Shown here piece by piece: positions 5,110-27,640 of a stretch of DNA of 35,940 nucleotides (position 1 is its first letter; every line of letters starts with the position of its first letter). The translations under genes and the position numbers were made by a program. The stretch spans positions 1-35,940 of the forward strand of contig JAEUPE010000044.1 of NCBI GenBank assembly GCA_016790435.1. Reading direction: 5' to 3'. The stretch comes from Rubrivivax sp. GTDB lineage: Bacteria; Pseudomonadota; Gammaproteobacteria; Burkholderiales; Burkholderiaceae_C. The notes beneath the pieces are model-generated. The model was not told the DNA's origin and did no database searches. It saw only the letters and a program-made list of their open reading frames with translations.

Positions 5110-5736
5110 TTGCCCCGGTTGAGCCGCATCGCCCTCTTCGGCGGCACTTTCGACCCGCCGCACCGGGCGCATCTGGCGCTGGCGCATGCGGCGCTGGCTG
5201 CCCTGGGCTTGGCCGAGTTGCGCTGGGTGCCCACCGGCCAGCCCTGGCAGAAGCTGCAGGGTGGCCGTGCCATCACGCCGGCCGCGCACCGCGTCGCGAT
5301 GGTCGAAGCCGCCATCCGCGGGGAGGGCGGCAACGTTCGCTTCGTGCTCGACCGCATCGAGGTCGACCGCACCGGGCCGAGCTACACCATCGATACCCTC
5401 GACACGCTCGCAGCGCGCGAGCCGGGCCACGAGTGGGTGCTGCTGATCGGGCAGGACCAGTACGCCGGCCTGCACACGTGGCGCGGCTGGCGCGAGTTGC
5501 TCGCGCGCGTGACGCTGGCCGTGGCCAACCGGCCCGGCGTCGCGATCGACCCAGCGCCCGAGGTGCGCGCGCTGCCGCATCGCGTCGTGCCGCTGCCCAT
5601 GCTCGACATCTCGGCCACTGACATCCGTGCACGGGTGGCGGCCGGGCTGGGCATTGCTGAACTGGTGCCGGCCGAGGTGGCCGGCTATATTGCCCGCCAT
5701 GGGCTGTACCGCGCGCCTGCTTCGGGCGCGGGTTGA
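5110..5736 (+). CDS. nadD: Nicotinate-nucleotide adenylyltransferase
   Basis: NadD transfers AMP from ATP to nicotinate mononucleotide, forming deamido-NAD in NAD synthesis. The nucleotidyltransferase signature GGTFDPPHRAHL appears near the N-terminus. The usual HxGH reads HRAH here, so both histidines are kept and the glycine is Ala. The second ATP-binding block is ISATDIRAR near the C-terminus. Length of about 208 aa is normal. The hemF stop lies in the same frame just upstream, and no in-frame ATG or GTG exists before the conserved region. Translation must therefore start at TTG 5110 or TTG 5119. The stop overlaps the rsfS TTG start. Confidence 0.95.
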   Translation: MPRLSRIALFGGTFDPPHRAHLALAHAALAALGLAELRWVPTGQPWQKLQGGRAITPAAHRVAMVEAAIRGEGGNVRFVLDRIEVDRTGPSYTIDTLDTLAAREPGHEWVLLIGQDQYAGLHTWRGWRELLARVTLAVANRPGVAIDPAPEVRALPHRVVPLPMLDISATDIRARVAAGLGIAELVPAEVAGYIARHGLYRAPASGAG

Positions 5737-6464
5737 TTCCCTGGGAGCCGCACCTGGACATCCGCAAGCTGCAACGCGCCATCGTCGACGGACTCGAAGA
5801 CGTCAAGGCCCAGAACGTCGTCGTCTTCAACACCGAGGCCCTATCGCCGCTGTTCGAGCGAGTGATCATCGCCAGCGGCACGAGCAACCGGCAGACCAAG
5901 GCGCTCGCTTCCAGCGTGCGTGAAACGGTCAAGAAACGCGGGTTGGCCGTGCTGCGCACCGAGGGCGAGGACAACGGTGAGTGGATCATCGTCGACTGCG
6001 GCGCCGCGGTGGCGCACATCATGCAGCCGGCCATCCGCGACTACTACCACCTCGAGGAGATCTGGGGCGCGAAGCCGGTGCGCCTGAAAGGCTCCGGCGA
6101 CGCGAGCGTGGTGCGGCTGCTGCCGAAGGCGAGCGAGCCGCCGGCGGCGCCATCGCCAGCCGCTTCTCGTGCGCAGGCGCGCCAAACGTCGACGAGGGCG
6201 GCGGCCGGATCGGCGAGCCGCAAGACGCCAGCGAAGGCAGCGCCGAAGGGCCTCGCGGCTAAGAAGGGCGGAGCGAAGACCGCCGAGGCAAAGAAGGCTG
6301 CGGCGAGGCGACCGGCACCCCGGAAGTCGCCGACAGGCCGGCCAGGGGCCAAGGCGTCGCCGGCGGCCAAGCCCGCAGCTCGCAAGGCCCCCGCCAAGCG
6401 CCCCGGGCTGGGCGCCAGGCCCGCTCCACGCAAGGCCGGCGCCGCCAAGCCCCGCCCACGCTGA
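5733..6464 (+). CDS. rsfS: Ribosomal silencing factor RsfS with long basic C-terminal tail
   Basis: RsfS (Iojap/RsfA) binds ribosomal protein uL14 and blocks joining of the 30S and 50S subunits when nutrients are short. The first ~125 residues match the family: LDIRKLQRAIVDGLEDVKAQ, then the ASGTSNRQTKAL, EGEDNGEWIIVDCG and YYHLEEIWG blocks. The remaining ~115 residues are a low-complexity Ala/Lys/Pro/Arg tail with repeated AAKP/KAA/RKAP units, like a histone H1 tail, so the protein is about twice the usual length. The likely start is TTG 5733, which overlaps the nadD stop as TTGA; no ATG lies upstream of the conserved core in this frame. The tail is followed closely by rlmH. Confidence 0.93.
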   Translation: MIPWEPHLDIRKLQRAIVDGLEDVKAQNVVVFNTEALSPLFERVIIASGTSNRQTKALASSVRETVKKRGLAVLRTEGEDNGEWIIVDCGAAVAHIMQPAIRDYYHLEEIWGAKPVRLKGSGDASVVRLLPKASEPPAAPSPAASRAQARQTSTRAAAGSASRKTPAKAAPKGLAAKKGGAKTAEAKKAAARRPAPRKSPTGRPGAKASPAAKPAARKAPAKRPGLGARPAPRKAGAAKPRPR

Positions 6465-7028: not shown

Positions 7029-10000
7029 CTAGGGCTTCTTGGTCGCGTGCACCGCCAGGGCGGCCTTCGTGGCTTCGGCGCGACGGCGCCAAGGGTGTGA
7101 CTCGGGCAGCGTCGCTGACAACTGCTGCATCGCGTAGTCGAGCGTCTTCCTTGCCTCGGCGATGTCGCCATTGGCGCGGTGCGCCTCGGCGAGCACGAGT
7201 GCGGCCTGGCCGCTGCGGAACGAAGGCCGGGCCTTCTGTTCCTCGATGTCGGACTGGTGCAGCGCCCGGGCCTGTTGCAAGGCCTGCAAGCCAGCGCTGA
7301 TCGAGCGGTCGTACTGCTGCGCTGCCAGCGTCGCTTCGGCTCGCAGGAGATTGGCGACGGCGCGAAGGCGTGGCGCGAGCTCGTTGCCTGCCCCGATGAG
7401 GCGGTCCGCCTCGCGCTGAGCCTCGACGTACCGGCCCTGGTGCAGCGCCAGTTCGATGGCGGTCGCGCGGCAGGCATGGTCGGCCTCGCGCAGGGCCGTG
7501 CGGACGCTGTCGTGCGCCTCGTCGCCCTGGGTGGCAGGAGCCGCGCCGACGACGATCACCGGCAGGAAGCCCACGTTCGATGTGCCGCGGATGGCCGGGC
7601 CGCCGGGTGCGCTTGCGCTGGGCCCGCTGACGGGGCTGGAGGCAAACCTGCCGGTTCGTGCCGGCACCTCGGGGGCGGCCGACTTCAACCACCGCTCGGC
7701 GGCAGCGGTGTCGCGCTCGCGCAGCGCGGCGACTGCCATCGCACAACGCGCGCGCTGGCGCATCACCGGGTCTTCGCGTGCATCGGCCAGGCCGATTGCC
7801 CGCTCAAGGCGGGCACGTGCGTCGACGAGTTGATGCAGATCCAGGCGCGGCTCGGCCGCGGCCAGGAAGAGCAACGCTGGCGCCGCGGTGGCGGGGTCGG
7901 CATCGGCCGGCATGGGTGAACCGGCGACGGCCGCGAGGTTCTCGTCGGCGAGCTTCAAGGCTCGCTCGCCATCGCCCGCGGCGAGACTCAGTTCGCCCCA
8001 TTGCTCCCGCAGCTCGATGGCGATGGGTCCTTGGCCCTGCTGGAGCAGGTCGAGGCGCTTCAGCGCCGATTCGAACCACGCTTGCCCTTCGTGGAAGAAG
8101 CCCAGCGCCGCGCTCTGCATGCCCGCGGGGCGCGCCAGCAGCACGGCGAGTTGCAGCGGCTTGTCCGGCGTGGCGTCCCATTGCTGCCATGCACGGAACG
8201 TGCTGCCATGGGCATCGCGTGCGCGACCGGAGCGACGCTCGAGGTCGGCCAGACGAACCAGGCACAGGGCGCGCGTCGCGTGCCGCACCGACACGTTCTC
8301 GGTGACGCGGCGAATCCGTTGCTCGGCTTCGTCGGGCTTGTCGCCCTGCCGGGCCTGCGCCCAGGCTTCGTCGCAAGTGGCCTCGAGCGCAGCCGTCGGG
8401 TCGACCAGGTTCGGGAGCGCCTCGGCCAGCAGGTTGCGCGCCTCCGCGAAGGCGCCACTCTCGGCCCGCTCGCGCCCGATCAAGGCGAGCGCGGCGGCCA
8501 GGTCCTGGGGCCGCTGACCCAGGCTCGAGCGCGCCACCGCTTCGGTACGCGCTAGCACCTCGGGCCAGTCGCGCGAGACGCCCGGCGTGGCGGCTTCGAA
8601 TAACTGGTCTCGCAGCAGGCGCGTCACCGCTTCGCTGCCCCGGCGCACGCCTTCGGCCTGTTCGCGTTCGGTCGACCAGACCCACGCCTTCCACGACAGT
8701 GCGCCAAGGAAGACGAGGAAGGCGGCAGCGCCCAGCACCGCCACCGTGGCCAAGCGGCGGTGGCGGCGGACGAGGCAGCCGATTTGATAGAGAAAGCCGC
8801 CCTCCACCGCCGTCACCGGACGGTGCATGCCGACCCGCCTGACGTCGTCCAGCAACTCGGCGGCACTGGCATAGCGGTCCGCTGGATCGGTCTGCGTGGC
8901 CTTCGTGACGATGGCGTCGAGATCGCCGCGAAGCGCCCGGCGCAGCCGGGGCACGTGGGCGAAGTCGCTGGGGCGTGGCCAGCGCGATCCCGGCGCAGCA
9001 ACCACCGTGGTGCCCGGCGTGCGGGGCTGCCACGGCGATGCCCCGGACAGCACCTCGAAGGCCACGAGACCGAGCGCGTAGATGTCACCGGTAGCGATGG
9101 GTGCGCCGGCGACCTCGCCCGTGTCCCCACCATCTCTCTGCACCTCCGGTGCACCATACGCGCGCACCGGTGGCCCCGCCACGCCGTGCGACGCGCCAGG
9201 GTGCGGCGCATCGAGCAGGTCCAGCAATTCGGACAACCCGAAGTTCAGAAATCGGAGGCGGCCGCCGGGTGTCAAGACGATCTGCGAAGGGTGCACCTGG
9301 CCGTGCAGCACCAGGCGCCCGTGCGCGAACGTGGCCGCTTCCAGCGCCTGTTCGAGCAGGGCGCGCCGCTCCTGCAGGCCGAGCGGATGGTCGCGACACC
9401 AGCGATCGATGGTCTGGCCCTCGGCCAGCTCGGCGGCGAACCAGGGTGTGCCCTCCTCGGTGACACCGACCTCGGTCAGCCGGGCGATGTGCGGGTGCAC
9501 CAGGGCCGTCGCGCGCGCCGACGCATGCGCGAGCCAGGCCGCCAGGTCGACGCGCGGCCGCCACTGCCTTGGCACCAGCAGCGCCAACTCCGGGGCGGGC
9601 GGCGGTTGGTCCGCGCGGCGGGCCCGCCATTGCTCGACGCGCGCATCGCTCGACGGCATCGGACCCAGCAGCAGCCAGGGACCCAGGCGCATGCCCGTGG
9701 CGAGGGCGGGCGCAAGAAGGCGCGGAACAGGCTCGGGCTCGGGCTCGGGCAAGGCCGGGTCATCCGCTGGCGCCTCGGGTCCCTCCTCGGACCCTTCGGG
9801 CGCTGTCTCCTGCCGGAGGTCCTGCGCGGCCGCAGGCTCGGGGCCGTGCAGCGCGTTCGACGAGGTCTGCCGGGCGGACGCAGCAGCTTCGTCGAGTGTG
9901 TGCGCGGGTGCCGTCTCGGCGATCGCTTCGGACGGGGCCCCGGCGATCTCCGTCGCGGGCCGTGGCGGCAACGGTTCGGTCTCCGCTGTCGTTGCAGGGG

Positions 10001-10424
10001 GCGCCGCTGGCGGCGCTGCGGGTTCTGGTTCGGAACCCGCGCCGCGAGGTCCGTCTCCTACGCCAGCAGTCGAGTCGATCGTGATCTCATCGCCCGGACT
10101 TTCGGCGTCGCGGACCTGTTCGACGCCCGGAAGCGGGTCCGGGACCGCTGCCACGGCAGGGGCAGCGGTGGTCCCGACGGTTCGCCCTGCCTCGCCTTCC
10201 GGTTCCGACCAAGCCGGCAGCATGGGGCCGTGCTCTAGGCCGGTTTCTCCGTCGGTGAGGTCGACGGTGGCCAGCATGTCACGCAGCCAGTCGACGGTGG
10301 CGAGTGGTTCGTCGTCGACGAGCGTGGCCAGCCAAGCGTGGCGCAACTCGGGCGGGAGCTCGCAGCCGGTGTCGAACAAGGTCGACAGTCGGGCCCAGGC
10401 CGCGGCGTCAGGGGTGGGGCGCAT
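7029..10424 (-). CDS. Membrane pseudokinase-like protein with long helical-repeat C-terminus
   Basis: This 1131-aa protein has the architecture of a bacterial Hanks-type Ser/Thr kinase but not its catalytic residues. Residues 1-55 form a helical module shared with the kinase at 19405. Residues 70-235 are an acidic Pro/Glu/Ala-rich linker. Residues 245-540 are kinase-like, with PHIARL, YGAPE, GDIYALG and a DLDAIVTKAT…DPADRYASAAEL segment. The catalytic loop reads HGQVHPSQ (374-381) where HRDLKPxN is expected. The DFG site is NFG (394-396), there is no GxGxxG loop, and VAIK has no lysine. A membrane helix spans about 558-582, and the rest is TPR-like. ATG 10424 is used; TTG 10448 is an alternative that overlaps the preceding stop. 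It may act as a scaffold or regulator rather than an enzyme (inference). Confidence 0.85.
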   Translation of the reverse strand: MRPTPDAAAWARLSTLFDTGCELPPELRHAWLATLVDDEPLATVDWLRDMLATVDLTDGETGLEHGPMLPAWSEPEGEAGRTVGTTAAPAVAAVPDPLPGVEQVRDAESPGDEITIDSTAGVGDGPRGAGSEPEPAAPPAAPPATTAETEPLPPRPATEIAGAPSEAIAETAPAHTLDEAAASARQTSSNALHGPEPAAAQDLRQETAPEGSEEGPEAPADDPALPEPEPEPVPRLLAPALATGMRLGPWLLLGPMPSSDARVEQWRARRADQPPPAPELALLVPRQWRPRVDLAAWLAHASARATALVHPHIARLTEVGVTEEGTPWFAAELAEGQTIDRWCRDHPLGLQERRALLEQALEAATFAHGRLVLHGQVHPSQIVLTPGGRLRFLNFGLSELLDLLDAPHPGASHGVAGPPVRAYGAPEVQRDGGDTGEVAGAPIATGDIYALGLVAFEVLSGASPWQPRTPGTTVVAAPGSRWPRPSDFAHVPRLRRALRGDLDAIVTKATQTDPADRYASAAELLDDVRRVGMHRPVTAVEGGFLYQIGCLVRRHRRLATVAVLGAAAFLVFLGALSWKAWVWSTEREQAEGVRRGSEAVTRLLRDQLFEAATPGVSRDWPEVLARTEAVARSSLGQRPQDLAAALALIGRERAESGAFAEARNLLAEALPNLVDPTAALEATCDEAWAQARQGDKPDEAEQRIRRVTENVSVRHATRALCLVRLADLERRSGRARDAHGSTFRAWQQWDATPDKPLQLAVLLARPAGMQSAALGFFHEGQAWFESALKRLDLLQQGQGPIAIELREQWGELSLAAGDGERALKLADENLAAVAGSPMPADADPATAAPALLFLAAAEPRLDLHQLVDARARLERAIGLADAREDPVMRQRARCAMAVAALRERDTAAAERWLKSAAPEVPARTGRFASSPVSGPSASAPGGPAIRGTSNVGFLPVIVVGAAPATQGDEAHDSVRTALREADHACRATAIELALHQGRYVEAQREADRLIGAGNELAPRLRAVANLLRAEATLAAQQYDRSISAGLQALQQARALHQSDIEEQKARPSFRSGQAALVLAEAHRANGDIAEARKTLDYAMQQLSATLPESHPWRRRAEATKAALAVHATKKP

Positions 10425-10444
10425 GCCAGTGCATCCGTCGGTTC

Positions 10445-11149
10445 TCAAGGCGACGGGATCGCCGCGCCCTTGGTTGCAGCCATCACGAAAGCGCGGGCCT
10501 TGAGCCAGCGGCGCCGCACCTCTGACTCGCCCTCGTTGAGCAGGCCCGCGATGGCGCCGTGCTCCAGGCCCGCGAACCAGCGCAGGCGGGCTGTGTGCGC
10601 GAGCGCGGGGTCGAGCTCGGCCAACGCGTCGAGCGCCTGCAGTGCGATCAAGGCGGTCTGCGCACGGTCGTCCGGTACCGCGCGGACAACCAGGTCGCGC
10701 ACCAGCCCTTCCATCAGAAAGGCGGCCTGCTCGACGTAGGGCAGGAACAACAGGCTCGGCACCGCAGCCTCGCCGTCGCCCTTGCCACCCTTGGCGCCCT
10801 TGGCGCCCTTGCGGGGCTTCGCGGTTGTCGAGGTCTTGCGGGCGGCCTTTCCCTTCTTGCCGGTGGCGCCCTTGGCGTCAACGCCATCAATGCCGCTCGC
10901 ACCGCTCGTGCCGGCCGCTGCCTCGGCCTCGTTCAGGCGCTGCCAATGCTGCCGCACCAGCGCACCGGCGTCGGCCATCGCGGCGGCGCCGGATTCAGCC
11001 AGCCGCTGCCGAAGCAGCGTCTCGAGCTCCGGGCGCAGGCGCGCCGCCAGTCGGCTTTCTGCACCGGGCAATGCCGCCGCCGCGTCGGCGAGCAACTGGG
11101 CGAGGTCGGCGTTCCCTGCAGCTTCCCCGATCGTGACCGTCGCTCCCAT
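10445..11149 (-). CDS. Degenerate ECF sigma-like protein with basic linker insert
   Basis: This 234-aa protein aligns by eye with the intact ECF sigma at 18818-19387. The N-terminal part (residues 5-75) resembles sigma region 2. The C-terminal part (residues 165-225) matches the sigma-4 helix-turn-helix: ALDALAELDPALAHTARLRW… compared with ALDALEAQDARLASVVEMRY, ending VRRRWLKARAF compared with VQRDWQKARLF. Between them, residues 80-128 are a Gly/Lys/Ala/Thr-rich low-complexity insert. Many otherwise conserved positions have changed, so promoter recognition is doubtful. The stop overlaps the TTG in frame with the downstream pseudokinase (TTGA at 10445-10448), a junction also present in the intact sigma/kinase pair. 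Function is unknown; an adaptor or DNA-binding role is possible. Confidence 0.75.
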   Translation of the reverse strand: MGATVTIGEAAGNADLAQLLADAAAALPGAESRLAARLRPELETLLRQRLAESGAAAMADAGALVRQHWQRLNEAEAAAGTSGASGIDGVDAKGATGKKGKAARKTSTTAKPRKGAKGAKGGKGDGEAAVPSLLFLPYVEQAAFLMEGLVRDLVVRAVPDDRAQTALIALQALDALAELDPALAHTARLRWFAGLEHGAIAGLLNEGESEVRRRWLKARAFVMAATKGAAIPSP

Positions 11150-11182
11150 CGGGCGACTCTACCGCGCCCTTCCGGCAGCGAC

Positions 11183-12337
11183 CTAGGCCCCGGTTGTGTC
11201 CGGTTCGACGAATTCGCCCTCGACGAATACCCCCCGCAGATGCAGGTCCCGGTCGAGGACCACCAGGTCGGACTTGGCGCCGGCCGCCAGACGCCCGCGG
11301 TCGTGCAGGCCGAGGTACTGCGCGGCCATCGTGCTCGTCCGCCGCGAGGCCTCGGCGAGGTCGAGGCCGATGTTCACCAGGTTGCGCAGTGCCTTGTCGA
11401 GCGTGAGCGCGCTGCCGGCCAGCGTGCCGTCGGCCAGGCGCACGGCGCCCAGGCACTTGTGCACGCGTTGCGCGCCCGCGCCGTGTCCGAGGTGGTACTC
11501 GCCGTCGGGCATGCCGGCCGCCGCGGTGGCGTCGCTCACGCAGTACAGGCCCGGGATGGCACGCAGCGCCACGCGTGCCGCTCCCGCGTGCACGGTGACG
11601 AGGTCGGCGATCAACTCGGCGTACTGCGCATGCGCCAGCGCCGCCCCGACCATGCCCGGCGCGCGCTGGTGCAGCGGGCTCATGGCGTTGAAGACGTGCG
11701 TGAACCCGGCGGCGCCGGCCTCGAGCGCGGCCACGCCGTCCTCGTAGCTGCCGTTGCTGTGCCCTACCTGGACGAGGAAGCCCGCATCTCGCAACGCGCC
11801 GATGATCGGCAGGTGGCCCTCCACTTCCGGCGCCAGCGTGATGACCCGGATCGGTGCGAGCGCGTGCAGCGCCCGCACTTCGGCCAGCGTGGCTCGGCGC
11901 GCGAAGGCGGGCTGCGCGCCCAGGCGTTGCGGATTGAGGTAGGGCCCCTCTAGGTGGATGCCGAGCCAGCGCGCGGAGCCCGGCGCGCGTGTGGCGCCCT
12001 CGCGCACGAGGGGTGCGAGCGCGGCGAGCGCCGCCTGCACCTCCTCCAGCGGCGCCGTCATGGTCGTGGCCAGCATCGAAGTCGTGCCGTGCGCCGCATG
12101 CCGGCGGGCGACGGCGAGTGCCGCCTCGGCGCCGTCCATCACGTCGTGCCCGCCACCCCCATGCACGTGCAGGTCGATGAAGCCCGGCAGCACGATGTCG
12201 CGCGTGCCGTCGCGCACGGCCCGGGCGTCGGCCACGGGCGCACCGCGGATGGCGGTGATGCGGCCGGCCTCGTGCTCGAGCGCGCCGGCGACGAACCCGT
12301 CGGGCGTGAGGATGTGGCCTTGGAGGCGGGCGACCAT
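11183..12337 (-). CDS. nagA: N-acetylglucosamine-6-phosphate deacetylase
   Basis: NagA removes acetate from GlcNAc-6-phosphate, feeding amino-sugar use and cell-wall recycling. The 384-aa product has the amidohydrolase metal site: DLHVHGGGG (HxH at 57 and 59), HLEGPYLNPQ with Glu130, GHSNGSY with His193, THVFNAM with His214, and catalytic Asp269 in VSDA. ATG 12337 is chosen because the family's N-terminus begins there. A longer open frame would run into the neighbouring lipoprotein gene. No nagB, nagK or sugar transporter is nearby, so it may act on recycled GlcNAc-6-P, or partner genes may be elsewhere. It lies 13 bases after the lipoprotein stop and about 30 bases before the sigma-like gene. 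Confidence 0.95.
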   Translation of the reverse strand: MVARLQGHILTPDGFVAGALEHEAGRITAIRGAPVADARAVRDGTRDIVLPGFIDLHVHGGGGHDVMDGAEAALAVARRHAAHGTTSMLATTMTAPLEEVQAALAALAPLVREGATRAPGSARWLGIHLEGPYLNPQRLGAQPAFARRATLAEVRALHALAPIRVITLAPEVEGHLPIIGALRDAGFLVQVGHSNGSYEDGVAALEAGAAGFTHVFNAMSPLHQRAPGMVGAALAHAQYAELIADLVTVHAGAARVALRAIPGLYCVSDATAAAGMPDGEYHLGHGAGAQRVHKCLGAVRLADGTLAGSALTLDKALRNLVNIGLDLAEASRRTSTMAAQYLGLHDRGRLAAGAKSDLVVLDRDLHLRGVFVEGEFVEPDTTGA

Positions 12338-12350
12338 GGGGCGCGGCCCG

Positions 12351-12905
12351 TCAGGGCGCCACGGAGACGTGGTGCGCCAGCACGAGCCAGCGCTCACCCA
12401 TGCGTTCCAGGACGAGGGTGAAGTTCTGCAGCACCTCGACCATCGGCACCGTTGAAGCAGCGCTGCCTACGGCTGCCGAACCGCCGGCAGGCACCTTGAA
12501 TCGGTACTGGCCGGCCAGCACGGTGATGGCGCCGCTCACGCGCGTGGTCTGCTGCACCAGCGCCGCGGTCGGGTTGGGCCGGCTGCCGCAGCCGGCGGCC
12601 AGGTAGCGCTGCAGGCCCTCGCGCGTGGTCAGGGCCTGCTTGGTGTTGGAAGTGGCGAAGGTGAACAACGGGGCATACGCGCCGACGAAGACGGCCTCGT
12701 TGCAGCTGTTGAAGGCGTCGATGAGGCGGGCGTGCGCCTGCGCGGGCGTGCCACCGCCCGGCGAGGCCGAGGGGCTCGGCGGGGCTGTCTCGCAGCCGCC
12801 GAGCACGGTGGCCAGGACAACAGCCGATGCGAGCGCTCGTGTCGGCGCCGCGAAGCGACGCCAGCCGCCGGCGCGCGCGCGGGAGTGTGGTGAGAGGGTC
12901 ATCAT
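12351..12905 (-). CDS. Small lipoprotein, SnoaL/NTF2-like
   Basis: The N-terminus has a basic region and a hydrophobic stretch ending in a lipobox, VLGGC, with the cysteine at about residue 37 counted from ATG 12902. This predicts a lipid-anchored envelope protein. The mature part (about 145 residues) has the pattern of SnoaL/DUF4440 NTF2-like folds: helical [21 protein letters not shown], then strands ending [12 protein letters not shown]. Such domains often bind small molecules or serve as scaffolds. Two consecutive ATG codons (12905 and 12902) are both possible starts. It sits 13 bases upstream of nagA on the same strand, so the two may be co-transcribed, and it is divergent from maf. The specific function is not known. 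Confidence 0.72.
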
Positions 12906-13087
12906 GCGAAAGCGTGGCGGGCAGGCCCGGTGCGCCAGCCGGCGCGGGGCGCCATGATGCTCCTTCGGCACCGCCTGCCCGCCGGCCGATGCGAGCGGTT
13001 ACGGTGTTGCGACGTCCAGCCTGTTCGGCCAACCGTCGGCAGGCCCCTGATCTTCCCGGAGCCGGTGTGCCTCGGTGGGCCGCCACA

Positions 13088-15442: not shown

Positions 15443-17887
15443 CTAGGCGCCGAAAGGCATCGCGTCGGTGGCGGGCAGGTCAGCTTCGCTGGCCGTGGCC
15501 GGCATGCCGCGCCAGCGGCGCAGGAAGTCGGCCACGTCGTCGTCAGGCAGCGGCCGCGCCACCAGGTAACCCTGGATCGTGCGGCAGCCGTAGCGTTGCA
15601 GCACGCCGGCATGGGCGGGTTCCTCCACGCCCTCGGCCACCGTGTGCATGCCCAGCGTGCGCGCCAGGCCGAGGATCATCTTGACGATGGCGCGTGCGTC
15701 GCCGCGCGTGGCGAGCTCGCGCACGAAGCTTCGGTCGATCTTGAGCGTGTCGAAGGGAAAGCGGCGCAGGTAGGCCAGCGCGGAGTAGCCGGTGCCGAAG
15801 TCGTCCAGGGCGATGCGCACGCCCGCGGCGCGCAGGGCGCGCAGCGCATCGAGCGTGGCCTGCGACTCCTGCAGGAAGACCGACTCGGTGATCTCCAGCT
15901 CCAGCCGCGCCGCCGGCAGCCCGGCCGCCTGTGCCGTGGCCAGCACCCGCTCGACGAACCCGCCGCCCAGGGCCTGCACCGGGGAGACGTTGACCGACAC
16001 CACCAGCGGTTGTGGCCACGCTGAGGCCTGCCGGCAGGCCTCGGCGAGCACCCAGTCGCCGATCTCCGCCATCAGCCCGCCTTCCTCGGCCACGGGGATG
16101 AACTCCGACGGCGGCACGTCGCCCAGTTCGGGGTGCCGCCAGCGCGCCAGGGCCTCGAAGCCGGTGACGGCCCAGTCCTCGATGCGCGCCTGCGGCTGGA
16201 AGACGAGGTGCAACTCGCCGCGCGCCAGCGCACCGCGCAGCGCCTGCTCCAGCGCGACGCGGCGGCGTGTGGAGGCGGCCATGGCCGGCGCGAAGAAGAA
16301 GGCCTCGTTGCGGCCGGCCGCCTTGGCCGCGTAGAGCGCGAGGTCGGCATGGTTCAGCAAAGTGTCCACGTCCTGGCCGTCGCGCGGGGCGAGCGCGACG
16401 CCGATGCTGGCGTAGGTCGTGAGCTGCAGCCCGTTCACCAGGCAAGGCTGGCGCAATGCCTCGATGACGCGTTGCGTCAGCTGTTCCACCTCGTGCATCT
16501 CGCCAGCGGCCATCAACACCGCGAACTCGTCGCCGCCCAGGCGGGCGACCACGTCGCTGCGCCGCGTGACGCCGCGCAGGCGTTCACCCACGGCCTGCAG
16601 CAGCGCGTCGCCGACGGCGTGCCCCAGCGTGTCGTTGACCGATTTGAAGTGGTCCAGATCCAGGCACAGCACCGCGAAGTTCGCGGGCGGCCCGGCCAGC
16701 AGCGCCGAGAGCTGGCTGCGGAATTGGTGCCGGTTGGCCAAGCCGGTCAACGCGTCGTTGTGAGCCAGCCAGCTGAGCCTCAGGTTGGCCTTGCGCGCCG
16801 CGGTGATGTCGGTGGCCACGCCCCGCCAGCCGTCGGGGCGGCCCTGTTCGTCGAGCAGCGGTTTGGCGCTCAGCGACCACCACAGCACGCGGCGGCCGCG
16901 CCGCGTGGGCAGCGGCAGGTCGCGAAAGGGCACGCCCGCCTGCAGCGCCTCGCGCAGGTCGGTCAGGTGCGAGGAGGCCCCTTCTTCGTCGGGCAGCAAT
17001 TCGGCCAGGAGGGCGAGAAGTGGCGTGCTGGTGAGCTTCGCGGCCGGCATCCCGAACAGCCGCGACAACCGGGCGGAGACGTGGCGCAGGCGGCCGTCGC
17101 GCCCGGTCTCCCAGAGGAGGTCGCTGGCGTGCTCTTCGAAGTCACGCAGCAGCAGGCCGATCACCTCGTTCTGGCGTTCGGCCTCCGCCTCGGCCATGAG
17201 GCGGGCGCCGAAGAGTCGCGCCGTCGAGCGCACGCTCGCGATGACGATGCCGCAATAGACGAGGAGCAGCCCGCCGATCACCGGCGCCAGCGCCAGGCCG
17301 GAGGTGGCCAGTGCCACCGCCGAGCCACCGCCGAGGATGGCGACATAGGCCACGCCGGCCTGTGGCAGCGTGGCCAGGGCAAAGCCGCCGGCGCAGATCA
17401 TGCCGGTGGCGACCGTGGCCACGAGCAGCTGTTGTTCGGACGTGCCGCCGGGGAAGAGCGCGATCGGCATCGTGGCCCACAGCGTGGCCAGCAACGCGGC
17501 CTGCAGCGTCGCGCGCCGAACGGCACGTGCCGAGGCTGTCTCGCGCCGCGGGGCGCGCCGCTGCTCCACCCAGGTGCTCGTGCCGCGCAGCGCCACGCCG
17601 ACCACGGCCACGGCCCACAGCACCAGGAAGACGTGCCGCCCACCCTCCCAGGTGCCATAGACGACCAGGGCCACGTTCAGCAGGTTCGCCAGCATCGCCA
17701 ATGGCGTCAGCCGCAGCACGGCCTGGAGTTGCCGTGCGCGGAAGCGTCGCGCAGCCGACTCTTCGGTTCGATACGGCTCGAGCCAAGTCGCCAGTCGGCG
17801 CCAACCGACGCTGGCCAGGGCGGTGTCGATGTTCAAGAGGGGGACCGGCGTGCCGGCGAGGAGGACATCGATTATTTCGATCGCCAC
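15443..17887 (-). CDS. Membrane PAS–GGDEF–EAL cyclic-di-GMP protein
   Basis: This 814-aa protein likely makes and/or degrades cyclic di-GMP at the inner membrane. Roughly five or six membrane helices lie in residues 60-220. A PAS-like domain follows (about 245-365, ending GWRGVATDITAARKAN). The GGDEF domain covers about 370-535, with intact GGDEF at 451-455 and an RxxD inhibitory site at 442-445. The EAL domain covers about 545-795, with EAL at 578-580, EITES, DDFGTGYS at 695-702 and KIDRSF. Both catalytic signatures appear intact, so sequence alone cannot say which activity dominates. The start is GTG 17887; no better ATG precedes the membrane region. It is followed convergently by rng. Confidence 0.93.
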   Translation of the reverse strand: MAIEIIDVLLAGTPVPLLNIDTALASVGWRRLATWLEPYRTEESAARRFRARQLQAVLRLTPLAMLANLLNVALVVYGTWEGGRHVFLVLWAVAVVGVALRGTSTWVEQRRAPRRETASARAVRRATLQAALLATLWATMPIALFPGGTSEQQLLVATVATGMICAGGFALATLPQAGVAYVAILGGGSAVALATSGLALAPVIGGLLLVYCGIVIASVRSTARLFGARLMAEAEAERQNEVIGLLLRDFEEHASDLLWETGRDGRLRHVSARLSRLFGMPAAKLTSTPLLALLAELLPDEEGASSHLTDLREALQAGVPFRDLPLPTRRGRRVLWWSLSAKPLLDEQGRPDGWRGVATDITAARKANLRLSWLAHNDALTGLANRHQFRSQLSALLAGPPANFAVLCLDLDHFKSVNDTLGHAVGDALLQAVGERLRGVTRRSDVVARLGGDEFAVLMAAGEMHEVEQLTQRVIEALRQPCLVNGLQLTTYASIGVALAPRDGQDVDTLLNHADLALYAAKAAGRNEAFFFAPAMAASTRRRVALEQALRGALARGELHLVFQPQARIEDWAVTGFEALARWRHPELGDVPPSEFIPVAEEGGLMAEIGDWVLAEACRQASAWPQPLVVSVNVSPVQALGGGFVERVLATAQAAGLPAARLELEITESVFLQESQATLDALRALRAAGVRIALDDFGTGYSALAYLRRFPFDTLKIDRSFVRELATRGDARAIVKMILGLARTLGMHTVAEGVEEPAHAGVLQRYGCRTIQGYLVARPLPDDDVADFLRRWRGMPATASEADLPATDAMPFGA

Positions 17888-17991: not shown

Positions 17992-18555
17992 TCAGCGTCG
18001 GAGGTTCGCGGCTGGCGCGGTTGGCGCGGCAGGCGGGCGGCCGTCGGCGCGGGCCTCGAGCGCGGCAGCCCACAGCCCGGCGGCGTTGTCGATGTCGGCG
18101 CAAAGCGAGGCCAGCCCGATCGAGACGCGTGTGATCACGGGGTCGCTGCCGAGCGCGTACACGCCGCCCAGCGTCAACGCCAGGCGCTGCCGTGTGCCCG
18201 GCGCGTCCTTGGGCCGGCAGCCGGGAAGCAGCACGCCGTACTCCAGGCCAGCGAGGCGCACCACGGAGTCCTTGGCCCGCGTGCGCGCCCGCAGGCGGTT
18301 CCACAGTTCGTGCGACACGGCCGACTCCATGCCATCCACGGGGCGGCCGTCGAGGGTGCCGACGCCTTCGATGCCGATCGACAGCACGGCCAGGGGCTGG
18401 CCGTAGCGGCGGCATTGCGACAGGTGGCGCTCGATCACGGCGAGGAACTCCGCCTGGCCGGGCTCGATGCCGGCCGGACTGCTCCGCGACCCTTCCAGGG
18501 GCGGCCCCTCGGGGGCACGGTGACCGGACAGGGGCAGGGCAGGTGGGTGCAGCAT
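17992..18555 (-). CDS. Small protein with degenerate GGDEF domain
   Basis: From ATG 18555 the product is 187 aa. Residues 33-150 follow the GGDEF fold: a helix QAEFLAVIERHLSQCRRYGQ, a strand PLAVLSIGIEGV, then VVRLAGLEYGVLLPG where an active enzyme has RLGGDEFAVLLPG, and a later VSIGLASL strand. The signature reads AGLEY and the metal-binding aspartate of the first strand is absent, so cyclase activity is unlikely. No sensor domain or membrane segment is seen. It lies about 105 bases upstream of the GGDEF/EAL gene on the same strand and divergent from the ECF sigma gene. It may be a c-di-GMP- or GTP-binding effector, or a decaying cyclase. Confidence 0.75.
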   Translation of the reverse strand: MLHPPALPLSGHRAPEGPPLEGSRSSPAGIEPGQAEFLAVIERHLSQCRRYGQPLAVLSIGIEGVGTLDGRPVDGMESAVSHELWNRLRARTRAKDSVVRLAGLEYGVLLPGCRPKDAPGTRQRLALTLGGVYALGSDPVITRVSIGLASLCADIDNAAGLWAAALEARADGRPPAAPTAPAANLRR

Positions 18556-18817
18556 GGGGAGTCCGCGGGCGAAGCAGGGTGTGGCGGGATGCCGACGGGT
18601 GCGCGGGGAGAGCGTCTCCCGGCACGCCCGCGGCGGCGGTTGTCGAGGCCGTCGAAGAGGCCCCTGTTCACTGAGACGCAATCGCCGGCGGCGACCCGAC
18701 ATCCGCCGGCGTCGCCCCACATCCCCAATTGCGAACAACGTCGCACTTCGGCGCCTGCCTGGGGCTGCACTAGAGTCGCAGCCTGCGACCCGCGCCCGCC
18801 CGGTGCCTCCGGTGCCC

Positions 18818-19387
18818 ATGTCCGAGATCACGACGCTGCTCCAGGCTGCCAGCGGCGGCGACCGCCAGGCCGCCGACCGTGCCTACGCGCTGCTGTACGC
18901 CGACCTGCGGCGTCTCGCACACAGCCGCCTGCGTCGTGAAGGTGTGTACACGCTCCTCGACACCACCTCGCTGGTGCACGAGTCGTACCTGCGACTGCAT
19001 GGCTCGGCGGAGCCTGGGTTTGCCGGTCGCGACCAGTTCCTGGCCTACGCCGCGCGCGTGATGCGCAGCGTCGTCGTCTACCTCGTGCGCGCGCGCAACG
19101 CCGAGCGGCGCGGTGGCGGCGCGGCGCATGTCACGCTCAGCACCACGCTCGTCGAGGGTGACTTGGGCCGGGCCGGCCGCGCGGGCGGCCGCGACGAGGT
19201 GCTGCAGGTGCACGAGGCACTCGATGCGCTGGAAGCGCAGGACGCGCGCCTGGCCAGCGTGGTGGAGATGCGCTACTTCGGCGGCTTGAGCGAGCGCGAG
19301 ATCGCCGAGGCGATGGGCGTCACCGAGCGCACCGTGCAGCGCGACTGGCAGAAGGCGCGCCTGTTCCTCGCCGTGGCGATCGGTTGA
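18818..19387 (+). CDS. ECF sigma factor, Sigma70_ECF/TIGR02999-like
   Basis: This 189-aa protein begins MSEITTLLQAASGGDRQAAD. It has the sigma-2 region with YADLRRLAHSRLRRE, TTSLVHESYLRL and FLAYAARVMRSVVVYLVRAR, and a C-terminal sigma-4 helix-turn-helix, YFGGLSEREIAEAMGVTERTVQRDWQKARLFL. This pattern is typical of the ECF group whose genes sit next to membrane Ser/Thr kinases. Established examples of kinase-linked ECF factors are activated by phosphorylation instead of an anti-sigma factor. ATG 18818 is chosen because the conserved part begins right after it. The stop overlaps a TTG in frame with the downstream kinase (TTGA at 19384-19387), so the two are probably translated together. Target promoters are unknown. 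Confidence 0.92.
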   Translation: MSEITTLLQAASGGDRQAADRAYALLYADLRRLAHSRLRREGVYTLLDTTSLVHESYLRLHGSAEPGFAGRDQFLAYAARVMRSVVVYLVRARNAERRGGGAAHVTLSTTLVEGDLGRAGRAGGRDEVLQVHEALDALEAQDARLASVVEMRYFGGLSEREIAEAMGVTERTVQRDWQKARLFLAVAIG

Positions 19388-19404
19388 GGCGGGCCGGCGA
19401 CCCG

Positions 19405-22068
19405 ATGCAAGGCATCGAGCCTGCCCGCTGGGCCGCCTTGTCGCCGCGGCTGGACGAGCTTCTCGACCTGCCCGAGGCCGACCGGGCCGAGTGGCTGGCC
19501 GCCCTGCGCGGGCGCGACGCGAGGCTCGCCGATGAACTCGAAGCCCTGCAGGCGCGCCTGCAGGGCCTGGACGCGCGCGGCTTCATGGCCGCGCCCGCCT
19601 TGCCGGCGCCGGCCGGCCTGGCCGGGCAGGTGCTTGGCGCCTACACGCTGGAGCGCGAGATCGGCCGCGGCGGCATGGGCCAGGTGTGGCTGGCGCGGCG
19701 CACCGACGGGCACTACGAGGGCGCAGTGGCCATCAAGCTGCTGCAAGGCGGCCTGCTGCGCGCCGGGGAGGCCGCGCGATTCGCACGCGAGGGTCGCATC
19801 CTGGCGCGGCTGGACCAGCCGCACATCGCCAGGCTCATCGACGCTGGTGTCGCGCCCGAGGGTGGCCAGCCCTACCTCGTGCTGGAGTACGTGGACGGCG
19901 AGCCGATCGACCGCTACGTGCAGCGCCTGCAGCCGCCGCTGGCCGCACGGCTGGCGCTGCTGATCGACGCCGCCGAGGCGGTGGCGCACGCGCACGCGCG
20001 GCTGATCCTGCACCGCGACTTGAAGCCCTCGAACATGCTGGTGCGGGCCGACGGCCAGCTCAAGCTGCTTGACTTCGGCATCGCCAAGTTGCTCGACGAG
20101 CAGGCCAGTGGCGCCGCCGGCGAGCTGACGCAGCGCGCCGGCCAGGCCTACACGCCGCGCTACGCCGCCCCGGAGCAGCTGCAGGGGCAGGACGTGACCA
20201 CCGCCACCGACGTCTACGCGCTCGGTGTGCTGCTCTATCAGCTGCTGGGAGGTGGCCACCCCACCGGGGCCGAGGACGGCACACCATTGGAGGTGCTGCG
20301 CGGCGTGGTGGAGACGGTGCCACGTCGCCTCTCCGAGCAGGTTCGGCGCCAGGGCGGCCCCGGCGCGCGCCGGCGCGCCGACGAACTGCGCGGCGACATC
20401 GACACCATCGTCGCGCGCGCGCTGAAGAAGAACCCCGCCGAGCGCTACGCCAACGCCGCCGAGTTGGCCGAGGACCTGCGCCGCACGCTGGCGCACGAGC
20501 CCATCCGCGCACGGCCCGACACCTGGCGCTACCGCAGCGCCAAGTTCGTGCGCCGCCATCGCGTCGGCGTGGCTGGGGCCGGCGTGGCGATGACGGCGGT
20601 GCTGGCCGGCGCGGGCGTGGCGGTGCAGGAGTCGCGCGAGGCGAGCGCCCAGCGCGTGCAGGCCGAAGGGCTGCTGGAGTTCATGCTCGGCGACCTGCGC
20701 AAGAAGCTGCAGCCGGTGGGTCGGCTGGACGTGCTGGACGCGGTGGGCGAGCGGGCGCTGGCGTACTACGCGGCGCAGGAGGCGTCGAGCCTGGACGCCG
20801 ACGCGCTGGCGCGGCGGGCGCGGGCGCTGCACCTGATCGGCGAGATTGCCGAGCTGCGTGGGCAGGCGGCGGAAGCACGGCAGCGGTTTGCCGAAGCCGC
20901 GCGCAGCACGGCGGAGCTGCTGGCGCGCGCGCCCAACGACCCGCAGCGGGTGTACGAACATGCGCAGAGCGAGTTCTGGGTGGCCGAGGCAGCACGCCGG
21001 AACGGCAGACCGGACGAGGCGCAAGCGGGGTTGGAGCGGTACCGGGCGCTTACGCAGCGGCTGCTTCAACTAGAGCCGGACAAGGCCGAATGGAAGCTGG
21101 AGGCGGCATCCGCCGAGCACAACTTGGCCGTGCTCGTCTACGAGCAACGCCAGCCGCAGCGGGCGCTGGCGCTATGGCGAAGCGCTCGTCCCGTCTTCGA
21201 GGCACAGGCAGCCAACAGCGAGGCGGCGCGCATTGGCTTGAGCAACAACCTGGGCTGGACAGCCCGCGCGCACGAGGATCTGGGCGATCTGAAGGCCGCG
21301 CTCGAAGCCCATAGCGCGAAGGTTGGTTTGCTCAAACGCAGTGCGGCCTCTGACCGTGAGAGTCAGTTTCAGACCGCCCTCTCGCATGCGGACTCGGCGC
21401 GGCTGCAACTGGCATCGGGCTATTGGGCCCGGTCACGGGACGAGGCCAATGTCGCTATCGCCTTGCTTGAGGGTTTGGTAGCGCTCGACGGCAGCAATCG
21501 CGAGTGGCGCGCGATGCTGGCCCTCGCTAAGGTGAGCCGGGCTGAGGCGCTGCTGGCCCAGGGTCGATTTCAACCCGCTGCGCAGAGCTTGGCCGAAGCG
21601 GCCAAATCGATAGCCCTGGTGCGGGCCCCAAGCCCCGAGTTCGACGGGCGTGATGTTGCCTTGCACGCTCGCTGGCTGACCGCGCAGGCGCGCCTGATGC
21701 CCCTGCGCGACGCCTCAGCGGCTGACATGGCGACTCTGCTGGATGCCGCCCTGGCGCGTGAGCCGCAGCTGCTGGCGCTGCGATCGACGCGGCGGCGCGT
21801 AGTCGCTGCCATGGCTCTGGTGTTGGGCGACTCGCTGGCCGCCCGCGGCGACGCGGCTGGTGCTCAACGGCGGTGGGAGCAAGGGCGGGACCTGGTCGGG
21901 GATCCCGGCCGAGAGCCGGTTTCCATGGCGGTGCTCGCCCATCTTCAAGAGCGGCTGGGGGCGACTCAAGCTGCGATGTCTTTGGCCGATAGCCTCCAGG
22001 CCAGCCTGTGTCGCCATCCGCTCGTATTCGACCTCTTTGCGCGATTGGGCCGGTCCCCCCCCAGTTAG
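19405..22068 (+). CDS. Membrane Ser/Thr protein kinase with TPR-like C-terminus
   Basis: This 887-aa Hanks-type kinase probably phosphorylates itself and a partner, most likely the adjacent ECF sigma (inference). Residues 1-60 are a short helical module. The kinase domain spans about 78-370, with IGRGGMGQVW as the glycine loop, the VAIK lysine at 111, HRDLKPSN at 203-210, DFG at 223-225, AAPEQ, and TDVYALG. A membrane helix spans about 387-407. The remaining ~480 residues are helical repeats, presumably periplasmic, that may sense an envelope signal. TTG 19384, overlapping the sigma stop, is an alternative start seven codons upstream. The 3' third of the gene is visibly less GC-rich than the rest. 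Confidence 0.93.
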   Translation: MQGIEPARWAALSPRLDELLDLPEADRAEWLAALRGRDARLADELEALQARLQGLDARGFMAAPALPAPAGLAGQVLGAYTLEREIGRGGMGQVWLARRTDGHYEGAVAIKLLQGGLLRAGEAARFAREGRILARLDQPHIARLIDAGVAPEGGQPYLVLEYVDGEPIDRYVQRLQPPLAARLALLIDAAEAVAHAHARLILHRDLKPSNMLVRADGQLKLLDFGIAKLLDEQASGAAGELTQRAGQAYTPRYAAPEQLQGQDVTTATDVYALGVLLYQLLGGGHPTGAEDGTPLEVLRGVVETVPRRLSEQVRRQGGPGARRRADELRGDIDTIVARALKKNPAERYANAAELAEDLRRTLAHEPIRARPDTWRYRSAKFVRRHRVGVAGAGVAMTAVLAGAGVAVQESREASAQRVQAEGLLEFMLGDLRKKLQPVGRLDVLDAVGERALAYYAAQEASSLDADALARRARALHLIGEIAELRGQAAEARQRFAEAARSTAELLARAPNDPQRVYEHAQSEFWVAEAARRNGRPDEAQAGLERYRALTQRLLQLEPDKAEWKLEAASAEHNLAVLVYEQRQPQRALALWRSARPVFEAQAANSEAARIGLSNNLGWTARAHEDLGDLKAALEAHSAKVGLLKRSAASDRESQFQTALSHADSARLQLASGYWARSRDEANVAIALLEGLVALDGSNREWRAMLALAKVSRAEALLAQGRFQPAAQSLAEAAKSIALVRAPSPEFDGRDVALHARWLTAQARLMPLRDASAADMATLLDAALAREPQLLALRSTRRRVVAAMALVLGDSLAARGDAAGAQRRWEQGRDLVGDPGREPVSMAVLAHLQERLGATQAAMSLADSLQASLCRHPLVFDLFARLGRSPPS

Positions 22069-24080: not shown

Positions 24081-24118
24081 GGCAGTGCGTTCGGGCGATC
24101 GGGAGATGCGGGCTGGGG

Positions 24119-24232
24119 TCATCGCGTCGGCGTGGGAGGTTCGTGATGAGTGGTTCGCGAGAGATCGGCGGCGGCTGGCGGGCGCGATGAGGCGGACAGG
24201 CTTGGCTGGGACTGATCCATCGTCCGCTTCAT
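24119..24232 (-). CDS. Possible 37-aa ORF between znuB and znuA
   Basis: An ATG at 24232 overlaps the znuB stop as ATGA. The frame ends at a TGA (24121-24119) that overlaps an ATG in the znuA frame (24122), again as ATGA. The peptide starts MKRTMDQSQPS and contains a THHEPP motif; it is Ser/Pro-rich and resembles no family I know. It may serve only to couple translation from znuB to znuA, or be chance. No ribosome-binding site is needed if coupling operates. Confidence 0.3.
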   Translation of the reverse strand: MKRTMDQSQPSLSASSRPPAAADLSRTTHHEPPTPTR

Positions 24233-25892: not shown

Positions 25893-25903
25893 CGCCGCAA
25901 CGC

Positions 25904-25993
25904 TCACGACAGAGCCCAGGCCACGGCCAGCCAGAGTGCCAGCACGAGGGCGCCGGCCCCCAACAGGCGCTGCAGGGCGCCGGTGCTCAGCAT
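25904..25993 (-). CDS. Possible 29-aa membrane peptide between zur and znuC
   Basis: ATG 25993 opens a 29-residue frame, MLSTGALQRL followed by a hydrophobic stretch ending LAVAWALS: one predicted membrane helix and little else. It fits almost exactly between the zur stop and the znuC start. No clear ribosome-binding site is visible and I recognise no family. Either a small transporter-associated peptide or chance. Confidence 0.35.
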   Translation of the reverse strand: MLSTGALQRLLGAGALVLALWLAVAWALS

Positions 25994-26018
25994 GATGAAG
26001 CGCCAACGGCGCGCGTGT

Positions 26019-26456: not shown

Positions 26457-26508
26457 TCATCGAGGGTAGCGGATTCCAGCGAGCTGAGGCAGGGCGGCCA
26501 TGAATGAT

Positions 26509-26522
26509 ATTGCACTCGCAAT
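26509..26522. promoter_or_regulatory. Inverted repeat near zur promoter (operator candidate)
   Basis: ATTGC and GCAAT flank a four-base spacer. On the minus strand a TATCAT -10-like hexamer (26504-26509) adjoins the repeat, so a bound repressor would block the zur promoter. This is consistent with Zur autoregulation; it was found by eye, not with a matrix. Confidence 0.45.
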
Positions 26523-26561
26523 ACGCAAAGACCCCAAGCGTCGGCGTACCGCCGCCGAGAA

Positions 26562-26583
26562 CAATAATGATACTTCGTTATTG
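26562..26583. promoter_or_regulatory. Fur/Zur-box-like inverted repeat upstream of the CobW gene
   Basis: CAATAA and TTATTG are separated by ten bases, with AATAATGATA in the left half matching the Fur-family pattern. It is one of the few AT-rich patches of the window and lies about 60 bases before the GTPase start, a good operator position. Confidence 0.5.

Positions 26584-26644: not shown

Positions 26645-27640
<996 letters not shown>

What the first reader, a model, noticed from the sequence alone, without database searches (positions are those of the whole stretch)
7029..11149. A non-catalytic sigma/kinase pair: degenerate ECF-like protein plus giant membrane pseudokinase
Seen: the kinase-like domain has HGQ for HRD, NFG for DFG, no visible glycine loop and no ATP lysine, yet keeps APE, GDIYALG and the C-lobe. 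Its upstream partner looks like an ECF sigma with diverged regions and a basic insert. Known: ECF factors paired with Hanks kinases are turned on by phosphorylation. Inference: this pair may signal by conformational coupling or binding through the pseudokinase, with the large TPR region as sensor. Both frames are long and intact, so it is unlikely to be simple decay.
Basis: partly seen in the sequence, partly recalled or inferred. Interest (0 to 1): 0.82.

Follow-up and report, generated by a model that had tools for sequence, protein, structure and literature searches.

The report
Dead kinase with a disarmed sigma
In a few related bacteria, a membrane protein kinase and the gene-switch protein that it would normally phosphorylate have both lost the parts needed for phosphorylation, yet the kinase-shaped protein has been kept under selection, which suggests that it now works as a scaffold or receptor rather than as an enzyme.

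Summary
The 1131-aa protein (ATG at 10424) keeps a Hanks-kinase domain, a membrane helix and a TPR superhelix, but has no glycine loop, beta3 Lys or alphaC Glu, HGQ for HRD, Gln for the loop Asn, and NFG for DFG. Six orthologues among 81 genomes of the genus share these losses; 52 of 52 examined paralogous kinases are intact at these positions. Kinase-domain dN/dS is 0.15-0.25 between close pairs, so decay is unlikely. The ECF-like neighbour kept sigma4 and a weak sigma2.1/2.2, but lost the region-2.2 Thr (38 of 38 paralogous ECFs have one, 0 of 3 here) and the adjacent Glu (38 of 38, 0 of 3); sigma2.3/2.4 is not recognisable. It is missing from the same locus in 3 of 6 genomes, probably lost twice. 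So the phosphorylation switch known from PknS-EcfK was dismantled on both sides, and the pseudokinase outlives its partner. Best reading: a non-catalytic membrane receptor or scaffold. A new variant of a known kind, found in one small clade.

The parts
8835..9719 (-). kinase-like domain, residues about 236-530
   Evidence: Pfam Pkinase; profile match to PknS 9EED, E 1.5e-27
9576..9578 (-). Leu283 in place of the beta3 ATP-binding Lys (Leu in 6 of 6, Lys in 52 of 52 paralogues)
9282..9305 (-). HGQVHPSQ in place of HRDLKPSN (residues 374-381)
9237..9245 (-). NFG in place of DFG (residues 394-396)
8697..8753 (-). strong hydrophobic (membrane) segment, residues 558-576
   Evidence: hydropathy peak 2.45 over 19 residues
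7680..8567 (-). TPR-like helical repeats, residues about 620-915
   Evidence: AlphaFold2 pLDDT mostly 60-90; Foldseek matches to TPR superhelices such as LGN 4g2v, E 1.6e-5, TM 0.67 by target
7047..7526 (-). C-terminal helical repeats, residues about 967-1126
   Evidence: conserved PSFRSGQAALV stretch
10445..11149 (-). ECF-like (pseudo-sigma) gene, 234 aa
10919..11113 (-). weakly recognisable sigma2.1/2.2 (residues about 13-77; 18.4 bits)
10961..10972 (-). DAGA at the region-2.2 motif that carries the phospho-acceptor Thr in EcfP/EcfK
   Evidence: role of the Thr from PMC13147305 and PMC8999054 (passages)
10781..10900 (-). basic low-complexity tract, net charge +10 in 40 residues (paralogous ECFs reach +3 to +8)
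10475..10681 (-). sigma4 (residues 157-225; 45.5 bits)
11156..11161 (-). TAGAGT, a -10-like box ending 6 nt before the ATG; the box is found upstream in all six loci (24 nt before the ATG in G088)
   Evidence: sequence; promoter function inferred
11183..12397 (-). nagA-like amidohydrolase, upstream in the same orientation in all six loci
12351..12971 (-). homologue of a SnoaL-like protein with a lipoprotein-like N-terminus, part of the same inserted block
   Evidence: 70.7% identical to the L145 protein, which Pfam places in DUF4440/SnoaL_3; the window copy itself was scanned only in a wrong frame

Best explanation
This is a dismantled phosphorylation switch. The ancestor was a PknS/EcfK-type pair: a membrane Ser/Thr kinase with a TPR part that activates an ECF sigma factor by phosphorylating it. 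In this clade the kinase lost the residues for nucleotide binding and catalysis, and its partner lost the Thr of region 2.2 and the neighbouring Glu. What selection kept is the membrane protein: kinase fold, membrane helix and TPR superhelix. I infer that it works as a non-catalytic receptor or scaffold: the TPR part binds or senses something outside the membrane, and the pseudokinase domain presents a protein-binding face inside. The ECF-like protein is probably an accessory adaptor (sigma4 plus a basic tract) rather than a phospho-regulated sigma factor, and it was discarded at least twice. Shown: the losses and their conservation, purifying selection, absence of the ECF-like gene from three loci, the TPR fold by prediction. 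Inferred: lack of ATP binding and activity, topology (by analogy with PknS), scaffold role, adaptor role.
For: Five core positions lost in 6 of 6 orthologues, kept in 52 of 52 examined paralogues. One clade, SH-aLRT 100, among 58 kinases. Kinase-domain dN/dS 0.153 (window-L136), 0.251 (window-L039), 0.238 (L136-L039), 0.22 (L137-L145), like the TPR part (0.145, 0.279, 0.219, 0.227) and below the linkers (0.44-1.18). Thr at one of two region-2.2 positions in 38 of 38 paralogous ECFs, 0 of 3 here; Glu of LVHE 38 of 38, 0 of 3. ECF-like gene between nagA and the pseudokinase in 3 of 6 loci, absent in 3 of 6; no close copy elsewhere found in those three; the three not one clade (p-AU 0.018). TPR superhelix by AlphaFold2 and Foldseek. 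PknS/EcfK mechanism from PMC13147305 (passages), EcfP from PMC8999054 (passages).
Against: No experiment. The kinase domain was not modelled (mostly pLDDT under 50), so its pocket is not seen. dN/dS of the ECF-like gene is 0.345-0.476, so it is still selected where present, which fits a kept function in the pair; HHalign still aligns it with the paralogous ECFs over the whole length (98.6% probability, poor in the middle). Three paralogous ECFs near the clade already lack the second Thr (DTGA), the one phosphorylated in EcfP, so the last step of loss concerns a Thr whose phosphorylation is not proven. Between distant orthologues dN/dS is higher (kinase 0.36-0.56, TPR 0.38-0.49) and the membrane segment reaches 0.87-1.43. 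The three genomes without the ECF-like gene are 73-88% complete. Only six genomes.
Confidence: 0.5

Rival explanations
1. Conformationally coupled pair: the ECF-like protein still works as a sigma factor, and the pseudokinase holds or releases it like an anti-sigma factor when the TPR region senses a signal.
For: Adjacent genes in 3 of 6 loci; sigma4 kept (41.8-48.8 bits); both genes under purifying selection.
Against: ECF-like gene absent in 3 of 6 loci, most simply lost twice; the pseudokinase domain equally constrained without it; region-2.2 Glu lost in 3 of 3 and profile positions 66-113 (sigma2.3/2.4 and linker) unmatched in 3 of 3.
Confidence: 0.2
2. The pseudokinase acts in trans on the active paralogues: it pairs with one of the intact ECF-linked kinases of the same cell and tunes it allosterically, as some eukaryotic pseudokinases do.
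For: Nine intact kinases of this type from the window's own genome are among the 52 examined; kinase fold kept under selection.
Against: No direct evidence of pairing; conservation of a dimer face was not tested; overlaps with the scaffold reading.
Confidence: 0.15
3. A relict: both genes are decaying copies of an active pair.
For: Catalytic motifs lost; partner missing from half of the loci; present in only 6 of 81 genomes.
Against: Long frames intact in five of six, the sixth (L136) running off its contig without a stop; dN/dS 0.15-0.25 in the kinase part between close pairs against 0.44-1.18 in linkers; shared specific replacements such as HGxxHP.
Confidence: 0.1
4. The fold acquired another transferase chemistry, as SelO and SidJ did.
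For: SelO also has HG at the start of the loop (table in PMC12599244, passage).
Against: In that table SelO keeps a Lys in the ATP motif and DYG; here beta3 Lys, alphaC Glu, both Asp and the Asn are gone.
Confidence: 0.03

Closest known systems
PknS-EcfK of Xanthomonas citri (and PknT-EcfP of Vibrio parahaemolyticus), ECF43-type phosphorylation-activated sigma factors
   Same: ECF gene before kinase gene (3 of 6 loci), kinase domain then membrane helix then TPR, extension before the kinase domain; best solved-structure match by sequence profile is PknS 9EED.
   Different: Catalytic residues lost; the partner lacks the Thr of region 2.2 and has a basic tract; partner missing in 3 of 6 loci.
GLW pseudokinase family (proteobacteria; PMC12599244, passages)
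   Same: Membrane helix C-terminal to the domain; beta3 Lys replaced by Leu in a Leu-rich strand; all three catalytic motifs lost.
   Different: HRD is HGQ or HGH, not GLW; it nests with ECF-linked TPR kinases of its own genus; 'sigma' and 'TPR' do not occur in that paper's text.
EssB/YukC pseudokinase of type VII secretion (passages of PMC12599244; PMC9600267 seen in a listing only)
   Same: Membrane pseudokinase with catalytic motifs and glycine loop degraded, serving as a structural recruiter.
   Different: Different partner system; homology between the two was not tested.
TIGR02999 Sig-70_X6 (ECF-type sigma factor)
   Same: The ECF-like protein's best NCBIfam match (44.6 bits).
   Different: Curated cut-off 126.15 bits; the intact ECF of the window scores 163.4.

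Membership tests
Hanks-type Ser/Thr kinase (active) | kinase-domain homology | tested here: met
   Pfam Pkinase 36.9 bits, cut-off 31.7; profile match to 9EED
Hanks-type Ser/Thr kinase (active) | glycine loop, beta3 Lys, HRD Asp, DFG Asp | tested here: not met
   Lys and both Asp absent in 6 of 6; the first loop Gly is kept in 1 of 6, the others in none
pseudokinase | loss of at least one of beta3 Lys, HRD Asp, DFG Asp | tested here: met
   all three lost in 6 of 6; criterion from PMC12599244 (passage)
pseudokinase | no phosphotransfer activity | not testable with these tools
   needs biochemistry
GLW pseudokinase family | GLW in place of HRD | tested here: not met
   HGQ in 3, HGH in 3 of 6
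GLW pseudokinase family | Leu or Trp in a poly-Leu motif in place of the beta3 Lys | tested here: inconclusive
   Leu in 6 of 6, in ALLV or AVLV rather than LLLL
PknS/PknT-type receptor kinase | kinase domain, membrane helix, TPR | tested here: met
PknS/PknT-type receptor kinase | catalytic motifs | tested here: not met
ECF43 / TIGR02999 phosphorylation-activated sigma factor | family score above cut-off | tested here: not met
   TIGR02999 44.6, 35.6 and 35.2 bits in the three orthologues against 126.15; no ECF43 model was on hand
ECF43 / TIGR02999 phosphorylation-activated sigma factor | phospho-acceptor Thr in region 2.2 | tested here: not met
   DAGA, DAGQ, DAGA in 3 of 3; Thr at the second or third position in 38 of 38 controls
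ECF43 / TIGR02999 phosphorylation-activated sigma factor | kinase gene next door | tested here: met
   3 of 3 ECF-like genes sit directly before the (pseudo)kinase
ECF sigma factor (any) | sigma2 and sigma4 both present | tested here: inconclusive
   sigma4 and weak sigma2.1/2.2 found; profile positions 66-113 unmatched in 3 of 3; a sigma2.3/2.4 remnant scores no better than shuffles (482, 777 and 270 of 2000 shuffles as good); HHalign aligns the whole length, poorly in the middle

The most novel reading that the evidence does not exclude
What selection preserved of the former sigma factor is its basic tract, not its sigma function. In two lineages the sigma part was deleted, while the promoter box and a basic tract stayed at the locus, now as an N-terminal extension of the pseudokinase itself: the basic tract (net +8 to +10 in 40 residues) lies in the ECF-like protein in the three loci that have one, and before the kinase domain in the three that do not. 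The pseudokinase would then be a membrane protein that captures nucleic acid, RNA polymerase or acidic lipid through this tract: a one-protein, phosphorylation-free descendant of a sigma/kinase two-protein switch. (Probability lowered from 0.2 to 0.15 on re-checking: 4 of 38 paralogous ECFs also reach +8, and 4 of 52 intact kinases reach +9 or more before the domain.)
Probability: 0.15. Interest if true: 0.72.

Novelty: new variant of a known kind. Interest (0 to 1): 0.55.

Why it matters
Phosphorylation-activated ECF sigma factors are a recently proven mechanism, and bacterial pseudokinases are largely unexplored by experiment (PMC12599244, abstract). Here a small clade shows kinase and substrate losing the two ends of one phosphorylation event, while at least nine intact kinases of the same type in the same genome serve as controls. 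It makes a question testable: what does a receptor kinase of this type do besides phosphorylating its sigma factor?

Tried and rejected
Rejected: simple decay (dN/dS). Rejected: artefact of one assembly (six genomes). Rejected: membership in GLW. Rejected: that the Asp at the first position of DAGA was newly gained to mimic phosphate; 23 of 38 paralogous ECFs have Asp there already. Rejected as unproven: that sigma2.3/2.4 survives after the basic tract (AAxVMxxLVRD looks similar by eye, but scores like shuffles, the first attempt, stopped on an error). Led nowhere: AlphaFold2 of the ECF-like protein (pLDDT 44, 3 rows) and of the kinase domain (5 rows). One search compared nothing because the loci were not yet on the machine. 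One search looked for APE at a wrong place; one search mended that. A first regular-expression count of the Thr motif gave 33 of 38 with 5 unmatched; the column count replaced it (38 of 38). Basic-tract control: the three ECF-like proteins reach +10, +9 and +8; 38 paralogous ECFs reach +3 to +8, four of them +8; 4 of 52 intact kinases reach +9 or more in the 120 residues before the domain, a stretch that may run upstream of the true start. RsfS in the same window also has a basic tail, so such tracts are not rare here.

Rows dropped or not seen: three kinase rows too short for the domain profile; one outgroup row with 13 residues left out of the rooted tree; of 47 ECF hits, seven with short matches and two duplicates, leaving 38; 5 of the 38 had no usable start for the promoter check. 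The 52 paralogues come from the best-scoring hits; the list was cut, so they are not every kinase of the genus. The scan rests on two peptide patterns and missed the 45% orthologue (G088), so it does not prove absence elsewhere.
Full report
What is there. The pair lies on the minus strand: an ECF-like gene at 10445-11149 (234 aa) and a kinase-like gene at 7029-10424 (1131 aa from the ATG; the TTG at 10448 gives 1139 aa). Neighbours are nagA upstream, and rlmH and rsfS downstream on the other strand. Pfam gives Pkinase at E 3.5e-9 for the large protein and only the sigma4 part of Sigma70_ECF for the small one. The intact pair in the same window (18554-19384 and 19384-22065, plus strand) is an internal control: Sigma70_ECF 138.5 bits and Pkinase 134.3 bits.

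Kinase motifs. The large protein lacks the glycine loop, the beta3 Lys (Leu), the alphaC Glu (Ala), the HRD Arg and Asp (HGQ), the loop Lys and Asn (His, Gln) and the DFG Asp (NFG); APE-Glu is kept. A profile of five orthologues finds the kinase domain of PknS, PDB 9EED, at E 1.5e-27; PMC13147305 names 9EED as PknS (passages). AlphaFold2 with five rows did not model this domain (mostly pLDDT under 50) but did model the C-terminal helical repeats, which Foldseek matches to TPR superhelices such as LGN (E 1.6e-5, TM 0.67 by target). A strong hydrophobic segment lies between them at residues 558-576.

How widespread. In 81 genomes of the genus (the window's own included), the conserved part after the membrane helix matches in 14; six are close (100, 80, 72, 63, 62 and 45% identity) and the next is 33%. 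In 399 genomes sampled from the family, the only strong match is the window itself; two others have weak partial matches. A scan of 84,980 species genomes with two peptide patterns gave four loci, titled Rubrivivax sp. (three) and Burkholderiales bacterium (one); it missed the 45% orthologue, so it does not exclude distant ones. The six close orthologues form one clade among 58 kinases of this type (SH-aLRT 100, quick tree).

Conservation of the loss. At the beta3 Lys, alphaC Glu, HRD Asp, loop Asn and DFG Asp, the canonical residue is present in 52 of 52 examined paralogues and 0 of 6 orthologues. The replacements are themselves conserved: Leu 6 of 6, Ala 6 of 6, Gln 3 and His 3, Gln 5 and Glu 1, Asn 5 and His 1; the loop reads HGxxHP in 6 of 6. 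Nei-Gojobori dN/dS for the kinase domain is 0.153 (window-L136), 0.251 (window-L039), 0.238 (L136-L039) and 0.22 (L137-L145); the TPR part is 0.145, 0.279, 0.219 and 0.227; the linker before the kinase domain is 0.44-0.61 in these four pairs; nagA is 0.13-0.17. Distant pairs give 0.36-0.56 for the kinase domain and 0.38-0.49 for the TPR part, with dS near 1, and 0.87-1.43 for the short membrane segment.

Locus. In five of the six genomes the block SnoaL-like gene, nagA, (ECF-like), pseudokinase lies between maf and rlmH; in the sixth (G082) the contig is too short to tell and rlmH lies on another contig. Of 75 genomes with an rlmH match, 69 are not of this clade; I examined 20 of these, chosen for long contigs, and in 20 of 20 neither nagA nor the pseudokinase is in the fetched stretch: maf follows rlmH within 150 bp in 14 and at 0.6-3.4 kb in 6.

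The ECF-like partner. It is present and adjacent in the window, G012 and G082, and absent from the same place in G009, G071 and G088. A profile of the three found no close copy elsewhere in the latter three genomes, only sigma4-type matches at E 1e-6 to 1e-10; these assemblies are 73-88% complete. On a tree of the kinase and TPR parts rooted with four intact paralogues, each of which has an ECF gene in front, G088 branches first, then G009 with G071, and the three with ECF-like genes form a clade (99/98); a tree that holds the three ECF-less ones together fits worse (p-AU 0.018), so two losses are the simplest account. G088 is a long branch and I named the group after seeing the tree, so this is moderate evidence.

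What the ECF-like protein lost. In EcfP the second Thr of STTA is phosphorylated and supplies charge for binding the RNA polymerase (PMC8999054, passages); in EcfK it is Thr51, in the motif QATE, and there are further sites in the sigma2-sigma4 linker (PMC13147305, passages). In 38 of 38 non-redundant paralogous ECFs from the fetched loci a Thr stands at the second or third position of this motif, and Glu ends LVHE; the three ECF-like proteins read DAGALVRQ, DAGQLVQW and DAGALIQR. Three ECFs that sit beside kinases near the clade (L140, L041, L042) read DTGALVHE, so the third-position Thr may have gone before, and the second went in the pseudokinase clade. The ECF of L040, beside the other near kinase, is cut by its contig and could not be read there. 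A profile of the 38 matches sigma2.1/2.2 weakly (18.4, 10.5, 9.7 bits) and sigma4 well (45.5, 48.8, 41.8 bits) in window, L136 and L039, and positions 66-113 in none; HHalign aligns the whole length at 98.6% probability, poorly in the middle. dN/dS of the ECF-like gene is 0.345-0.476, so it is still selected where it exists.

Promoter and basic tract. TAGAGT stands 6 nt before the ATG of the ECF-like gene in three genomes and of the pseudokinase in G009 and G071, and these five share the ATGGGAG start; in G088 it lies 24 nt before the ATG. TAnnnT boxes 5-8 nt before the start occur in 6 of 33 paralogous ECFs that could be checked, L140, L041 and L042 among them, and at 0.11% of 20,000 random window positions. 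A basic tract of +8 to +10 per 40 residues lies in the ECF-like protein where there is one and before the kinase domain where there is none (L039 has both); but 4 of 38 paralogous ECFs also reach +8, and 4 of 52 intact kinases +9 or more. This fits deletion of the sigma part with the promoter and a basic tract retained; the tracts are low-complexity and their homology is not shown.

Function. From established knowledge of kinases, Hanks-type catalysis is not expected without Lys, both Asp and Asn. Inferred: a receptor or scaffold role, with the TPR part outside the membrane as described for PknS.

Novelty. Searches of the open-access library showed no paper on a pseudokinase linked to an ECF sigma factor, as far as their lists went (one search listed 25 of 62 papers, 10 of 337); the one paper, a Myxococcus transcriptome study, was seen in the listing only. 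PMC12599244 (abstract, outline and passages) describes seven bacterial families made up of or rich in pseudokinases; 'sigma', 'TPR' and 'tetratricopeptide' do not occur in its text. Subscription papers and preprints were not searched.

Noticed in passing
window 18554-22068 (+): A second, intact ECF/kinase pair with canonical motifs and LDTTSLVHE; 92% identical in the kinase domain to one in G012 about 20 kb from that genome's pseudokinase.
   Followed up: partly
window 5733-6464 (+): RsfS carries a long Lys/Ala/Pro-rich C-terminal tail with a sub-threshold match to histone H1-like HC2; the RsfS-end of L074/L145 shows a similar tail.
   Followed up: no
window 11183-12971 (-): nagA and a SnoaL-like protein travel with the pseudokinase between rlmH and maf; nagA of the other five loci is 81-90% identical to the window's, the next nagA in the genus 69%.
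   Followed up: partly
window 11156-11161 (-): TAGAGT box 6 nt before the ATG suggests leaderless transcription of the ECF-like gene.
   Followed up: partly
L041, L042, L140, L146, L147: Intact kinases near the clade have HRDLKASN (Ala for the loop Pro) and their ECFs DTGALVHE, a possible intermediate state of the phosphorylation motif.
   Followed up: partly
window 23124-33268 (-): ZnuA-like protein, DUF3526 protein, ABC ATPase and TonB-dependent receptor in one stretch, looking like a metal-uptake cluster.
   Followed up: no
window 15443-17887 (-): PAS-GGDEF-EAL protein.
   Followed up: no
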